Assembly: GCA_022827945.1 (NCBI GenBank)
Contig: JAJEIT010000024.1
Span: forward strand, 1 to 42,179
DNA: 42,179 nucleotides
Source: Dehalococcoidia bacterium
GTDB taxonomy: Bacteria > Chloroflexota > Dehalococcoidia > Tepidiformales > Tepidiformaceae
Direction: 5' to 3'
The translations under genes and the position numbers were made by a program. Below, piece after piece: positions 23,152 through 27,406 of the stretch. Below the pieces are notes generated by a model. It was not told where the DNA came from. It saw only the letters and a program-made list of their open reading frames with translations, and ran no database searches. The stretch's first letter is position 1. The number at the start of each line of letters is the position of its first letter.

Positions 23152-23223
23152 AGTGACCACCTCCAGGGCCTGGAGCCAGCCAGATTCTACGGGGCAGGTT
23201 CTGAGTGCGGTGTAAGCGAGACA

Positions 23224-23312
<89 letters not shown>

Positions 23313-23319
23313 TCGTTCG

Positions 23320-23325
23320 ATTGTA
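23320..23325 (-). promoter_or_regulatory. -10 box TACAAT of tRNA-Ser
   Basis: TACAAT (5 of 6 consensus bases) ends 7 nt before the 5' base of the tRNA. The -35 region (near 23343-23348, CTCCCG) is poor. It lies next to the CIRCE element. Confidence 0.55.
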
Positions 23326-23348
23326 GTGCGGGATGGGCGGAGCGGGAG

Positions 23349-23375
23349 TTAGCAGTCACCACCGGAGAGTGCTAA
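23349..23375 (+). promoter_or_regulatory. CIRCE element (HrcA operator)
   Basis: TTAGCAGTC, 9 nt spacer, GAGTGCTAA. This matches the CIRCE consensus (TTAGCACTC-N9-GAGTGCTAA) except for one base in the left arm. Its left arm overlaps a TTAGCA -35-like sequence and its right arm overlaps the -10-like TAAACT at 23373-23378 (18 nt spacing), the usual location for HrcA repression. It controls the zinc-ribbon gene starting at 23417. Confidence 0.85.
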
Positions 23376-23416
23376 ACTGCCGGAGTCAGACTTCCGCTCA
23401 ACCTGGACGGACCCGC

Positions 23417-23719
23417 GTGCCCACCTACGAGTACCAGTGCGACTCCTGCAAGCGCAGATATGACCTGCGAGAGGGGTTCGACGCGCCGAGCAGCCACCCC
23501 TGCGAGCGCTGCGACAAGGGCACGGCGAACCGCGTGCTGCACGCGCCCACGGTCGTCTTCAAGGGCAGCGGCTTTTACGTGAACGACAGCCGCAAGTCAG
23601 AGAAGAGCACCAGCTCGAGCGAGAAGACGATGAGCCTGCCCAGTGACTCCGGCAAGAGCGACAGCAAGAGCAACGGCAAGAGCGCGAAGTCCAGCAGCAG
23701 TTCCTCCTCGAAGGACTAG
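23417..23719 (+). CDS. FmdB-family zinc ribbon protein
   Basis: A 100-residue protein. The N-terminal zinc ribbon is PTYEYQCDSCKRRYDLREGFD, with the second Cys pair in HPCERCDKGTANRVLHAPTVVFKGSGFY; these are FmdB/CxxC_CXXC_SSSS family hallmarks. The C-terminal 40 residues are a low-complexity Ser/Lys tail, also typical of the family. Start is GTG 23417, giving (M)PTYEYQC, the canonical FmdB N-terminus. The gene is preceded by a CIRCE element, so it is probably induced by heat or misfolded-protein stress through HrcA. Its molecular role is unknown; zinc or nucleic acid binding is likely. dtd begins 6 nt downstream. Confidence 0.92.
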   Translation: MPTYEYQCDSCKRRYDLREGFDAPSSHPCERCDKGTANRVLHAPTVVFKGSGFYVNDSRKSEKSTSSSEKTMSLPSDSGKSDSKSNGKSAKSSSSSSSKD

Positions 23720-23725
23720 CACCTC

Positions 23726-24190
23726 GTGCGCGCCCTCGTACAGCGCGTGAGCCGCTCAAGCGTGCGCGTGGACGGCGAGCTCGCGGGCGCCATCGAGAGT
23801 GGGTTCCTGGTGCTGCTGGGCGTCACGCACGGCGACGACGAAGCGATCGCGTATGCGCTCGCCCGCAAGGTCGCGGGACTGCGGGTGTTCGAGGATGCGG
23901 ACGGGAAGATGAACCGGGACCTGGCAGCCACGGGCGGGGCGATACTGTGCGTCAGCCAGTTCACTCTGTACGGGAGCGTGCGGAAGGGGCGGCGGCCGTC
24001 CTTCACGGAGGCAGCGGATCCGGCGTGGGCGGAGGCGCTCTACGAGCGCTTCTGCGCCGCAGTCGAGGGGGAAGGGGTGCGCTGCGAACGGGGACGCTTC
24101 GGCGCGCACATGGAGGTCGAGAGCGTGAACGACGGGCCCGTCACGCTGCTCATCGACAGCGCCGACCTGGAGCGTCCGCGCCGTGCTTGA
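23726..24190 (+). CDS. dtd: D-aminoacyl-tRNA deacylase
   Basis: A 154-residue DTD that hydrolyses D-aminoacyl-tRNAs and mischarged glycine. Hallmarks: MRALVQRVSRSSVRVDGE, VGLRVFED-like AGLRVFEDADGKMN, the active-site motif SQFTLYG (residues about 78-84) and the cross-subunit Gly-Pro motif NDGPVT near the C-terminus. GTG 23726 is 6 nt after the zinc-ribbon stop, so the gene probably shares its CIRCE-controlled promoter. Confidence 0.96.
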   Translation: MRALVQRVSRSSVRVDGELAGAIESGFLVLLGVTHGDDEAIAYALARKVAGLRVFEDADGKMNRDLAATGGAILCVSQFTLYGSVRKGRRPSFTEAADPAWAEALYERFCAAVEGEGVRCERGRFGAHMEVESVNDGPVTLLIDSADLERPRRA

Positions 24191-24220
24191 CCGGAGCGGC
24201 ACGGCGGGGAGAGTAGGTCC

Positions 24221-25927
24221 ATGACCGTATCGACGCGGATGAGCCGCTATTTCCTGAAGACGCTGCGGGAAGCGCCTGCCGAGGCGGAGCTTCCGAGTCA
24301 CCGGCTGCTGCTGCGCGCGGGTCTCGTGATGCCGCTGGCGGCGGGGCTCTACTGCTTCACGCCGTTCGGGTGGCGGGCGATGCGGCGCGTCGAAGAGCTG
24401 GTGCGCGAGGAGATGAACCGGGCAGGAGCGCAGGAGCTGCGGCTGCCGGCCCTGCAGCCGGTCGAGCTCTGGGAACGATCGGGGCGGAACGAGACCTTCG
24501 GGGGCGTGCTCTACCGCGTCTCGGACCGGCGGGAGCGGGACTTCGTGCTCGCCCCCACGCACGAGGAAGCGGTGAGCGCGCTGGCGGCCTCGCAGGTGCA
24601 GAGCTACCGCGACCTGCCCGTGACCCTCTACCAGTTCCAGCAGAAGTTCCGGGACGAGCCGCGTCCCCGCGGCGGGCTCATCCGGCTGCGGGAGTTCTGC
24701 ATGAAGGACGCCTACAGCTTCGACCCGAACTGGGAGACGCTGGACGAGTCGTACCAGGCGATGTTCGACGCCTACGCACGCATCTTCGCGCGGGCGGAAG
24801 TGCCCGCGGTGCCGGTCGAGGCGGACTCGGGGGCCATCGGGGGGAAGGACAGCCAGGAGTTCATCTACCTGAACGAGAACGGTGAGGACGAGGTGCTGCT
24901 GTGCTCCTCGTGCGGCTACGCCGCGAACGCGGAGAAGGCGACGTTCCGGGCGGAGCCGCCGGTCGCGGCCGGGCCCGCGCCGGTCGAGCGCGTGGACACG
25001 CCAGGGGTCGGGACCATCGCGAGCCTGGCGGCATTCCTCGGTGTCGAGGAGCGGCAGACCGTGAAGGCGGTGTTCTACGCCGCCGACGGGGAGCCGGTGT
25101 TCGTCGCCATCCGGGGCGACCTCGAGGTGAACGAGACGAAGCTGCGGAACCTGCTCAAGGCAGTCGAGCTGGAGGCGATGGATGACGCCACGGTGGCGCG
25201 GCATGGACTGGTGGCAGGTTCGGCCTCGCCGGTCGGGCTGGAGGGGATGCGGGTGGTGGCGGACACGAGCGCCACGGAGGCGGTGAACCTAGTCGGGGGA
25301 GCGAACGAGCCGGACGCGCACCTGCTCAACCTGAACCACGGCCGCGATTGGACCGCGGACCTCGTCGACGACATCGCCTTGGCCGAGGGCGGCCACGGCT
25401 GTCCCAACTGCGAAGGCACGCTGGACGTGCGCTCGGGCATGGAGCTCGGGCACGTCTTCAAGCTGGGCTCGACCTACGCCGAGGCGCTCGACGTTCGTTA
25501 TCTCGACGGCGAGGGCGAGCGGCGCCACGCGGTGATGGGCTGCTACGGGATCGGCGTCGACCGCTTGCTGGCAGCGATCCTCGAGGCGAACCACGACGAG
25601 GACGGCATCATCTGGCCCGAGACGCTGGCGCCGTTCGACGTGCATGTGGTGGTGCTCGGCGGCGACAAGCCGGAGGTGGCGGAGGCGCTGAGCGAGTTGG
25701 AGGCGGCGCTGGAGGCGGCGGGGCTGGAGGCGCTCGTGGACGACCGGGACGAGTCGCCGGGGGCAAAGTTCAAGGACGCGGACCTGCTGGGTATGCCCGT
25801 GCGGCTGACCGTGAGCCCTCGGGCGCTCGGGCAGGGCGGCATCGAGCTCCAGGCCCGGGCCTCGGGCGAGCGTGAAGTCGTGCCGATGGCAGAGGTCGTG
25901 GGGCGGATCCGGGCGGGCGTCGCCTAG
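24221..25927 (+). CDS. proS: Prolyl-tRNA synthetase, bacterial type with editing domain
   Basis: A 568-residue class II synthetase charging tRNA-Pro. The N-terminus RMSRYFLKTLREAP is typical, followed by motif 1, motif 2 (around QFQQKFRDEPRPRGGLIRLREF) and the YbaK-like INS editing domain (about residues 255-385) with VGTIASLAAFLGV and KAVFYAADGEPVFVAIRGD. Motif 3 is MGCYGIGVDRLLAA, then the anticodon-binding domain. ATG 24221 has GGAGAG upstream and begins 30 nt after dtd, so fmdB-dtd-proS form one run of genes. Confidence 0.97.
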   Translation: MTVSTRMSRYFLKTLREAPAEAELPSHRLLLRAGLVMPLAAGLYCFTPFGWRAMRRVEELVREEMNRAGAQELRLPALQPVELWERSGRNETFGGVLYRVSDRRERDFVLAPTHEEAVSALAASQVQSYRDLPVTLYQFQQKFRDEPRPRGGLIRLREFCMKDAYSFDPNWETLDESYQAMFDAYARIFARAEVPAVPVEADSGAIGGKDSQEFIYLNENGEDEVLLCSSCGYAANAEKATFRAEPPVAAGPAPVERVDTPGVGTIASLAAFLGVEERQTVKAVFYAADGEPVFVAIRGDLEVNETKLRNLLKAVELEAMDDATVARHGLVAGSASPVGLEGMRVVADTSATEAVNLVGGANEPDAHLLNLNHGRDWTADLVDDIALAEGGHGCPNCEGTLDVRSGMELGHVFKLGSTYAEALDVRYLDGEGERRHAVMGCYGIGVDRLLAAILEANHDEDGIIWPETLAPFDVHVVVLGGDKPEVAEALSELEAALEAAGLEALVDDRDESPGAKFKDADLLGMPVRLTVSPRALGQGGIELQARASGEREVVPMAEVVGRIRAGVA

Positions 25928-25936
25928 GCGCTTGCC

Positions 25937-25965
25937 TTGCCCCTGCCGGGTGCGCTTCCTACGAT
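25937..25965 (+). promoter_or_regulatory. Promoter of tRNA-Phe
   Basis: TTGCCC (25937-25942) and TACGAT (25960-25965) with 17 nt spacing; the -10 ends 9 nt before the tRNA. Confidence 0.6.
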
Positions 25966-25974
25966 GGCCTGCAC

Positions 25975-26050
25975 GCTGAGGTAGCTCAGTTGGTAGAGCA
26001 CTGCGCTGAAAACGCAGGTGTCCCCAGTTCGATTCTGGGCCTCAGCACCA
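25975..26050 (+). tRNA. tRNA-Phe (anticodon GAA), CCA encoded
   Basis: Acceptor GCTGAGG/CCTCAGC, discriminator A and encoded CCA; D-arm AGCTCAGTTGGTAGAGCA; anticodon stem CTGCG/CGCAG with loop CTGAAAA, anticodon GAA; T-loop GTTCGATTC. The length of 76 nt is standard. Confidence 0.97.
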
Positions 26051-26065
26051 CCCACCCTTCCCCGA

Positions 26066-27406
26066 TTACTTGGCTGCGGGCGTGAGCTCGCCGTCACGCC
26101 TCCCGCGCCGATCGAGGGCTCCGAACTCGACCTCCGCTTCGCGCGTGTTCGTATCGAGGCGCCGGAGCGACGGGCTGAGGGCATAGAACACGATTGCCAG
26201 GATGACCATGAGCACCGCGGCGAGCCCGACAGCGAAGGGGGCGCCGTACCGCTCGGCGATCCAACTCATGGGGACCGTGCCGAGCGGTGTCAGGCCGAAC
26301 GACATCATCAAGAGGCTCATGACACGACCACGAACGAAGTCGGGGATGAGCACCTGGATGGCCGTGTTGTTCAGCACCATGAACATGGTCACGAAGACAT
26401 CGGCGAAGAAGATGAGCGGTAAGGCGAGCAGGAACCAGGGGCTGACCGAGAACAGCAGGAGCGTGGCCCCGAAGGCGAAGATGCTCGCCATCATGCGTCT
26501 CAAGCGCTGGTGCGACTCCGCATCCCAGGCGACGTACACCGACCCGATCAGGCCCCCGATGCCGGCCGCCGCATTGAGGATGCCAAGCCCCGACTCGCCG
26601 ACCTCCCAGACATCGATTGCAAACACGACGAGCAGAGTCTGGAATGGCATCGCCAACAGGGTCGGGACGAGACCGAAGACAAGCAGCACACGCACGGGAG
26701 GGTGCTCCCATACGTAGCGGAAGCCGTAGGCGATGTCGCCGAGCACGGTCCGGCGCTCCTCCACCTCATCGGGATACGAGGGCCGGACGCGGAGCATCGC
26801 GGTGAGACCGATCCCGTACAGCACAAGCGCCACGGCCCAGGTGCTGGCGATGCCCACGACGGAGATGAGGATGCCCGCGACCACCGGCCCGACGACCCGC
26901 GTGAAGTTCATTCCGCCCATCTGGAGGGCCATCGCGTTGCCGAGACCCTGCCTGCCGACGACGTTCGCGATGATGGCCTGCCGGGCCGGCATCATGAAGG
27001 GGAAGAGCACACCGAGAAAGCCCGTGAGCACGAGCAGGTGGATGAAGCCGAGTTGGTCGGTGATGAGAAGCGCGAAGACAAGGGCTTCGTCGATGATCAC
27101 GGCGGTCTGCACGAAGAGGATGAGCTTGCGGCGGTCGAGCCGGTCGGCGACGGCGCCACCCAGGGGTGACACGATCAGCATCGGGATGGCGACGACGAAG
27201 TTGACGATGCCGAGGGCGAAGGCGTTGTTGTCGGTGAGGTCGTAGGCGAGGACGGAGCGCACGAGGAACTGCGCCATCATGGCGAACATGAAGCAGATGT
27301 TGCTGATGTAGAGCCAGCGGAACTGCTGGTAGCGGAGCGAGGAGATAAGCCGGTCCACGGCCGAGTCGTAGTGCGCCTCGACCACGTGGACGCCGGAACG
27401 GGACAC
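26066..27406 (-). CDS. MFS transporter (third, distinct from the tandem pair)
   Basis: A 446-residue polytopic protein with about 12 helices. Motif A is GGAVADRLDRRKLILF. The segments MMPARQAIIANVVGRQGLGNAMAL and NNTAIQVLIPDFVRGRVMSL place it in the same MFS_3/EntS-like exporter group as the tandem genes, but with lower similarity. GTG 27406 is preferred over an in-frame GTG at 27424 because GGAGGG lies 7 nt before it and a TAGAAT -10 box lies 1 nt before the longer start. It converges with the tRNA-Phe gene. Substrate unknown. Confidence 0.9.
   Translation of the reverse strand: MSRSGVHVVEAHYDSAVDRLISSLRYQQFRWLYISNICFMFAMMAQFLVRSVLAYDLTDNNAFALGIVNFVVAIPMLIVSPLGGAVADRLDRRKLILFVQTAVIIDEALVFALLITDQLGFIHLLVLTGFLGVLFPFMMPARQAIIANVVGRQGLGNAMALQMGGMNFTRVVGPVVAGILISVVGIASTWAVALVLYGIGLTAMLRVRPSYPDEVEERRTVLGDIAYGFRYVWEHPPVRVLLVFGLVPTLLAMPFQTLLVVFAIDVWEVGESGLGILNAAAGIGGLIGSVYVAWDAESHQRLRRMMASIFAFGATLLLFSVSPWFLLALPLIFFADVFVTMFMVLNNTAIQVLIPDFVRGRVMSLLMMSFGLTPLGTVPMSWIAERYGAPFAVGLAAVLMVILAIVFYALSPSLRRLDTNTREAEVEFGALDRRGRRDGELTPAAK

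What the first reader, a model, noticed from the sequence alone, without database searches (positions are those of the whole stretch)
23349..23719. CIRCE element drives an FmdB zinc ribbon gene rather than a chaperone
A one-mismatch CIRCE overlaps the promoter of an FmdB-type gene followed by dtd and proS. HrcA usually regulates groESL and dnaK. The placement implies that this zinc ribbon, and possibly dtd and proS, belong to the HrcA heat-shock regulon. The element also abuts the divergent tRNA-Ser promoter.
Basis: partly seen in the sequence, partly recalled or inferred. Interest (0 to 1): 0.52.

Follow-up and report, generated by a model that had tools for sequence, protein, structure and literature searches.

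The report
HrcA heat-shock switch on Ruc-type chaperone
A standard bacterial heat-shock control site sits in front of a small zinc protein that resembles a known stress-activated chaperone, so the arrangement is sensible rather than odd, though it extends that control to a little-studied lineage and links it to two tRNA quality-control genes.

Summary
The CIRCE element is real (23349-23375, 17 of 18 arm positions, none expected by chance). The genome carries hrcA and five CIRCE sites: before hrcA-grpE-dnaK, groES-groEL, a second groEL, hsp20 and this fmdB gene. A CIRCE lies before fmdB in 32 of 33 same-family loci examined, with an embedded promoter, against 6 of 19 loci from other families of the class. 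So this is most likely an HrcA-controlled Ruc homologue: known logic, conserved in a Dehalococcoidia family and recurring in Actinomycetota. dtd and proS follow after 6 and 30 bp with no detected terminator, so co-induction is likely but unproven; the CIRCE tracks fmdB, not dtd (0 of 57 CIRCE-fmdB loci outside Chloroflexota have dtd within 100 bp). An effect on the divergent tRNA-Ser is unsupported. Novelty is modest; a selenoprotein pair beside it was noticed in passing.

The parts
23349..23375 (+). CIRCE operator TTAGCAGTC-N9-GAGTGCTAA, predicted HrcA binding site
   Evidence: 1 mismatch of 18, 0 expected; at the same place in 32 of 33 same-family loci
23349..23354 (+). putative -35 hexamer TTAGCA inside the left CIRCE arm (inferred)
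   Evidence: 18-bp spacer to TAAACT; same layout at the hrcA, groEL2 and groES CIRCE sites of this genome (read by eye)
23370..23378 (+). putative extended -10 TG-C-TAAACT, right CIRCE arm plus 3 bases (inferred)
   Evidence: bases C, T just outside the CIRCE are invariant in 8 of 8 same-genus sites
23417..23719 (+). fmdB-type gene, probable ruc orthologue: 100-aa zinc ribbon plus disordered Ser/Lys tail
   Evidence: PF09723, TIGR02605, four invariant Cys, AlphaFold2
23726..24190 (+). dtd, D-aminoacyl-tRNA deacylase, second gene of the probable operon
   Evidence: TIGR00256 170.7 bits, cut-off 101.5; 6-bp gap
24221..25927 (+). proS, prolyl-tRNA synthetase with editing domain, third gene of the probable operon
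   Evidence: NF006625 696.8 bits, cut-off 558; tRNA_edit PF04073
23224..23312 (-). divergent tRNA-Ser (TGA); its -10 TACAAT is at 23325-23320
   Evidence: ARAGORN; -10

Best explanation
The gene is a homologue of the redox-regulated chaperone Ruc and is a fifth member of this bacterium's HrcA heat-shock regulon. At normal temperature HrcA sits on the CIRCE, which contains the promoter itself, and keeps the gene low; on heat or unfolded-protein load HrcA lets go and the gene is induced together with dnaK, groESL, groEL2 and hsp20. The protein waits zinc-bound; oxidation releases zinc and its disordered tail then holds unfolded clients for DnaK. dtd and proS are probably carried along on the same transcript. 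Shown: operator, hrcA, regulon partners, conservation, embedded promoter signature, Cys pattern, predicted tail disorder. Inferred: HrcA binding, heat induction, chaperone activity, co-transcription.
For: CIRCE 1 mismatch. hrcA, E 6e-40. All five CIRCE sites of the genome map to chaperone loci plus this gene (families). CIRCE with 3 or fewer mismatches within 150 bp of fmdB in 32 of 33 same-family loci, 31 of 33 at 2 or fewer. In the 24 family loci outside the genus, arms are near invariant, flanks random, and the loop carries TTGAC in 24 of 24 with a -10 (A 22, A 21, T 23 of 24) after an 18-bp spacer: a promoter inside the operator. Strict CIRCE-plus-FmdB-start pattern in 47 of 393 class genomes, reversed-pattern control 0. 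Genomes with hrcA have CIRCE in 53 of 54, genomes without in 3 of 6, Fisher p 0.002. Cys at 8, 11, 29, 32, the positions mutated in Ruc (PMC7448276); the tail is 91% hydrophilic and low confidence, pLDDT 45-51. No Hsp33 found in the genome, fitting the paper's anticorrelation. In M. tuberculosis HrcA represses ruc (PMC7448276).
Against: No expression or binding data. G004, a complete-looking single-contig genome of the same genus with hrcA, has lost the CIRCE arms before fmdB. L037 (same genus) has 3 mismatches. Outside the family 13 of 19 class loci lack the site, and 0 of 263 Chloroflexota genomes outside the class match the strict pattern. Three genomes with CIRCE lack a detected hrcA (G019, G030, G050; 72-85% complete). 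Full-length Rv0991c was not at hand for a direct alignment. FmdB family members have also been named regulators.
Confidence: 0.82

Rival explanations
1. The CIRCE regulates the whole fmdB-dtd-proS unit because translation fidelity (Dtd, ProRS) is the main point of the heat-shock control, with FmdB a passenger.
For: Gaps of 6 and 30 bp, no terminator or sigma-70-type promoter match in 23200-26100. fmdB-dtd adjacency in 16 of 19 CIRCE-bearing class loci outside the family.
Against: fmdB-dtd adjacency is as common without CIRCE (10 of 13 class loci). In 14 of 33 family loci about 1.3 kb separates fmdB from dtd, with the CIRCE still at fmdB. None of 57 CIRCE-fmdB loci outside Chloroflexota with enough sequence downstream has dtd within 100 bp. 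The promoter and terminator scan is weak in this G+C-rich DNA (it also missed the proposed CIRCE promoter).
Confidence: 0.08
2. FmdB is a DNA- or RNA-polymerase-associated zinc-ribbon regulator induced by heat, not a chaperone.
For: The family name comes from a putative regulatory protein (recalled); the predicted fold's weak best PDB matches are zinc-ribbon parts of the transcription factor RbpA and of MCM helicases (none with E at or below 0.001).
Against: Ruc, with the same Cys positions and tail type, has shown holdase activity in vitro (PMC7448276). The regulon is otherwise chaperones.
Confidence: 0.1
3. The CIRCE mainly controls the divergent tRNA-Ser.
For: 36 bp between CIRCE and the tRNA 5' end.
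Against: tRNA -10 TACAAT is separate from the CIRCE; no good -35 falls in it (by eye). 12 of 33 family loci have no divergent tRNA-Ser called there and all keep the CIRCE; the -10 element conserved next to the CIRCE points towards fmdB.
Confidence: 0.02
4. Chance palindrome.
For: One mismatch, patchy outside the family.
Against: 0 expected; conserved footprint.
Confidence: 0.01

Closest known systems
Mycobacterium tuberculosis ruc (Rv0991c), HrcA-repressed redox chaperone (PMC7448276)
   Same: Small N-terminal zinc ribbon with Cys 8, 11, 29, 32; hydrophilic disordered C-terminus; HrcA operator overlapping the promoter; no Hsp33 found in this genome.
   Different: In M. tuberculosis SigH also acts at the promoter and the next gene is Rv0990c (Hsp22.5); here the promoter looks sigma-70-like and the next genes are dtd and proS. 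Chaperone activity not tested here.
HrcA/CIRCE regulon (hrcA-grpE-dnaK, groESL)
   Same: Same operator and repressor family; the classic members are present in this genome.
   Different: Adds ruc and hsp20; a 2004 study of delta-proteobacteria found groESL the only constant member (PMC545781, passages read).
FmdB zinc-ribbon family, TIGR02605 / PF09723
   Same: Both models matched over cut-off.
   Different: The regulator role behind the family name (recalled) was not tested.

Membership tests
HrcA/CIRCE regulon member | CIRCE palindrome in the promoter region | tested here: met
   17 of 18 positions, 41 bp before the start codon
HrcA/CIRCE regulon member | hrcA gene in the same genome | tested here: met
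   C7:52448-53089, E 6e-40, 137.9 bits over 22.2
HrcA/CIRCE regulon member | same operator at known heat-shock operons of the genome | tested here: met
   hrcA-grpE-dnaK, groES-groEL, groEL2, hsp20
HrcA/CIRCE regulon member | site conserved before orthologues | tested here: met
   32 of 33 family loci; but 6 of 19 other class loci and 0 of 263 genomes in other classes of the phylum at strict match
HrcA/CIRCE regulon member | HrcA binding and derepression on heat | not testable with these tools
   needs bench work
Ruc family | four Cys in C-x2-C-x17-C-x2-C of an N-terminal zinc ribbon of about 50 residues | tested here: met
   C8, C11, C29, C32 invariant in 27 of 27 aligned family proteins; Ruc numbering from primer names in PMC7448276
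Ruc family | hydrophilic disordered C-terminus of 7-61 residues | tested here: met
   46-residue tail, 91% hydrophilic; pLDDT 45-51 for residues 61-100
Ruc family | sequence similarity to Rv0991c over the ribbon | tested here: inconclusive
   only residues encoded by printed primers were available (MPTYSYE.TQ, TT.ER, VVFKG); these match MPTYEYQCDS, CERC, VVFKG by eye
Ruc family | zinc binding and oxidation-activated holdase activity | not testable with these tools
   needs protein
FmdB family (TIGR02605/PF09723) | score over curated cut-off | tested here: met
   49 over 31.3 bits; 37.9 over 34.4 bits

The most novel reading that the evidence does not exclude
In Dehalococcoidia, HrcA controls a combined proteostasis operon in which a redox-activated holdase (Ruc) is induced together with two tRNA quality-control enzymes (Dtd and an editing ProRS), so heat and oxidation raise protein holding and translation proofreading together; and in some Solirubrobacterales the CIRCE has been kept while the Ruc protein lost all its cysteines, giving a natural redox-independent version like the constitutively active Cys-to-Ser mutants of M. 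tuberculosis Ruc.
Probability: 0.4. Interest if true: 0.55.

Novelty: new member of a known kind. Interest (0 to 1): 0.36.

Why it matters
HrcA control of Ruc was shown in M. tuberculosis. Finding the same operator-gene pairing conserved through a Dehalococcoidia family and recurring in many Actinomycetota supports a general role of FmdB/Ruc proteins as heat-shock chaperones, and argues against the default annotation 'FmdB family regulatory protein'. The conserved dtd link makes joint control of protein holding and tRNA proofreading testable.

Tried and rejected
Chance palindrome: rejected. tRNA-Ser as the target: rejected on conservation. dtd/proS as the primary target: rejected, CIRCE stays with fmdB when dtd is away. 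PDB sequence search of the protein: 0 matches at E up to 1. Foldseek against PDB: only weak zinc-ribbon matches, none at E 0.001 or better. Promoter/terminator consensus scan of 23200-26100: nothing found, so it neither supports nor excludes internal promoters. Paper searches: HrcA+FmdB 0 papers, CIRCE+FmdB 0, CIRCE+zinc ribbon+HrcA 0, HrcA+CIRCE+Dehalococcoidia 0, D-aminoacyl-tRNA deacylase+HrcA 1, a Streptococcus agalactiae temperature study, listing only, HrcA regulon+Chloroflexi 1, the Ruc paper itself. The library is open-licence PMC only, so 'not described' is limited to it. M. intracellulare table: an FmdB family gene with positive change values (3.44, 2.16) in a table of genes under acidic and oxidative stress (PMC11022373, one passage); orthology to ruc not tested.

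Rows left out of counts: of 60 relative genomes, 6 had no FmdB hit (G010, G013, G016, G037, G048, G049) and of the 54 with a hit G044 (gene cut by contig start) and G056 (weak, E 8.5e-4, not fetched) were not counted, leaving 52 loci. Second and third FmdB hits of G041, G042, G054, G055 were not examined. The 57 loci outside Chloroflexota are those of the 80 listed that had a tblastn hit and more than 600 bp downstream.

Full report
Observation. The window holds one CIRCE at 23349-23375 with one mismatch (none expected). The gene after it is FmdB-type by Pfam and NCBIfam. Its start, fixed by homology, is GTG 23417, not the upstream ATG at 23333 of the mechanical ORF list, which would run through the CIRCE. 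dtd and proS follow at 6 and 30 bp.

Regulon. The genome has one hrcA and exactly five CIRCE-like sites at 3 or fewer mismatches, with none for the reversed control pattern. They precede hrcA-grpE-dnaK (contig C7), groES-groEL (C76), a second groEL (C85), hsp20 (C57) and fmdB (C72) (Pfam identities). So fmdB is one of five and the other four are textbook chaperone loci. Among 60 relatives, CIRCE is present in 53 of 54 with hrcA and 3 of 6 without a detected hrcA (Fisher p 0.002), with the caveat that the three exceptions are incomplete genomes and that the genomes are related.

Conservation. Of 52 loci with an intact fmdB start, a CIRCE with at most 3 mismatches lies within 150 bp upstream in 32 of 33 from the window's family and 6 of 19 from other families of the class. 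A strict composite pattern (CIRCE core, 10-70 bases, FmdB start) matches 47 of 393 class genomes, 25 of 38 in the family and 22 of 355 outside it (split counted by hand). It misses the window itself and most of its genus, which share an arm mismatch. In a 301-genome phylum sample only 2 match, both in the family; 0 of 263 outside the class. All 80 listed loci start an FmdB-like protein, 64 with the four-cysteine pattern (several misses are cut or variant). By title, read by eye, 65 are Actinomycetota, 10 Chloroflexota, 2 unassigned, and one each Ignavibacteriales, Acidobacteriota and Rubrivirga. The last two carry proteins, and Rubrivirga also a CIRCE loop, much like actinobacterial ones, so contamination is possible.

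Mechanism at the promoter. In 24 family loci outside the genus, the CIRCE arms stand out against random flanks; the loop begins TTGAC in 24 of 24 and a -10-like element (A 22, A 21, T 23 of 24 at positions 2, 5, 6) follows with an 18-bp spacer. The operator thus contains the -35, and bound HrcA should block RNA polymerase. In the window's genus the loop has lost TTGAC; instead the left arm TTAGCA and the right arm TGC-TAAACT are spaced by 18 and the two bases outside the palindrome are invariant in 8 of 8. The hrcA, groEL2 and groES sites of this genome have the same form, with TAACAT or TAGCAT. This suggests promoter turnover around a kept operator; it is inference from sequence. In G004, of the same genus, the arms are gone but TTGACG and CACAAT remain upstream of fmdB (by eye), as if the gene had become constitutive.

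What the protein is. Becker and co-authors (PMC7448276; abstract, passages, sections 8, 10, 13) describe Rv0991c (Ruc): a zinc ribbon with four cysteines and a disordered tail, inactive when zinc-bound, a holdase once oxidised, aiding DnaK, and repressed by HrcA. They report it in 22 of 22 Chloroflexi genomes searched (given as 100%). The window protein has Cys 8, 11, 29 and 32 invariant in 27 of 27 aligned family members, the numbers of the paper's Cys-to-Ser mutants; a 46-residue tail, 91% hydrophilic; and a model that is confident for residues 1-50 (block means pLDDT 85-94) and not for the tail (45-51). No Hsp33 was found in the genome. Homology to Ruc is thus strong by pattern; full-length Rv0991c was not available, only the stretches in printed primers.

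dtd and proS. fmdB-dtd adjacency (100 bp or less) is found in 10 of 13 class loci without CIRCE and in 16 of 19 composite-pattern loci outside the family. It is therefore an older neighbourhood, independent of CIRCE. Within the family, 14 of 33 loci have dtd adjacent and 14 have about 1.3 kb between. Co-induction in the window is the simplest reading, but the selected target is fmdB.

Verdict. Observation right; regulon placement right; 'rather than a chaperone' wrong. A new lineage for a known regulator-chaperone pairing, with an operon context worth testing.

Noticed in passing
window 23160-22111 (-) and 22062-21016 (-): Two tandem AhpC/TSA-type redoxins, each with an in-frame TGA in YASW-U-GCRYDLPVW. 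The genome has tRNA-Sec (71.1 bits, gathering 47) and SelA (422 bits), and the TGA is conserved in 7 of 9 same-genus loci: very likely a selenoprotein pair, annotated as broken ORFs by table 11. It lies just beyond the tRNA-Ser, divergent from ruc.
   Followed up: partly
L128, L151, L153, L200: CIRCE-driven FmdB relatives, titled Solirubrobacterales or Solirubrobacteraceae, whose first 70 residues have no cysteines, yet they keep the KGKGFHNTDYGT region and the CIRCE. They resemble the constitutively active Cys-to-Ser Ruc mutants of PMC7448276.
   Followed up: partly
L040:1380-1502 (G004): Same genus, CIRCE arms lost before fmdB while a TTGACG/CACAAT promoter-like pair remains and hrcA is present: a natural loss of HrcA control.
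   Followed up: partly
L042:1834-3067 and similar family loci: About 1.3 kb inserted between fmdB and dtd; in L042 it holds two ORFs that look like TetR-type regulators by eye, not scanned.
   Followed up: no
L158, L189, L191, L199: Record titles (Bifidobacterium breve, Acidobacteriota, Rubrivirga) that fit poorly with their FmdB proteins or CIRCE loops, which resemble those of other Actinomycetota loci: probable mislabelled or contaminated assemblies.
   Followed up: no
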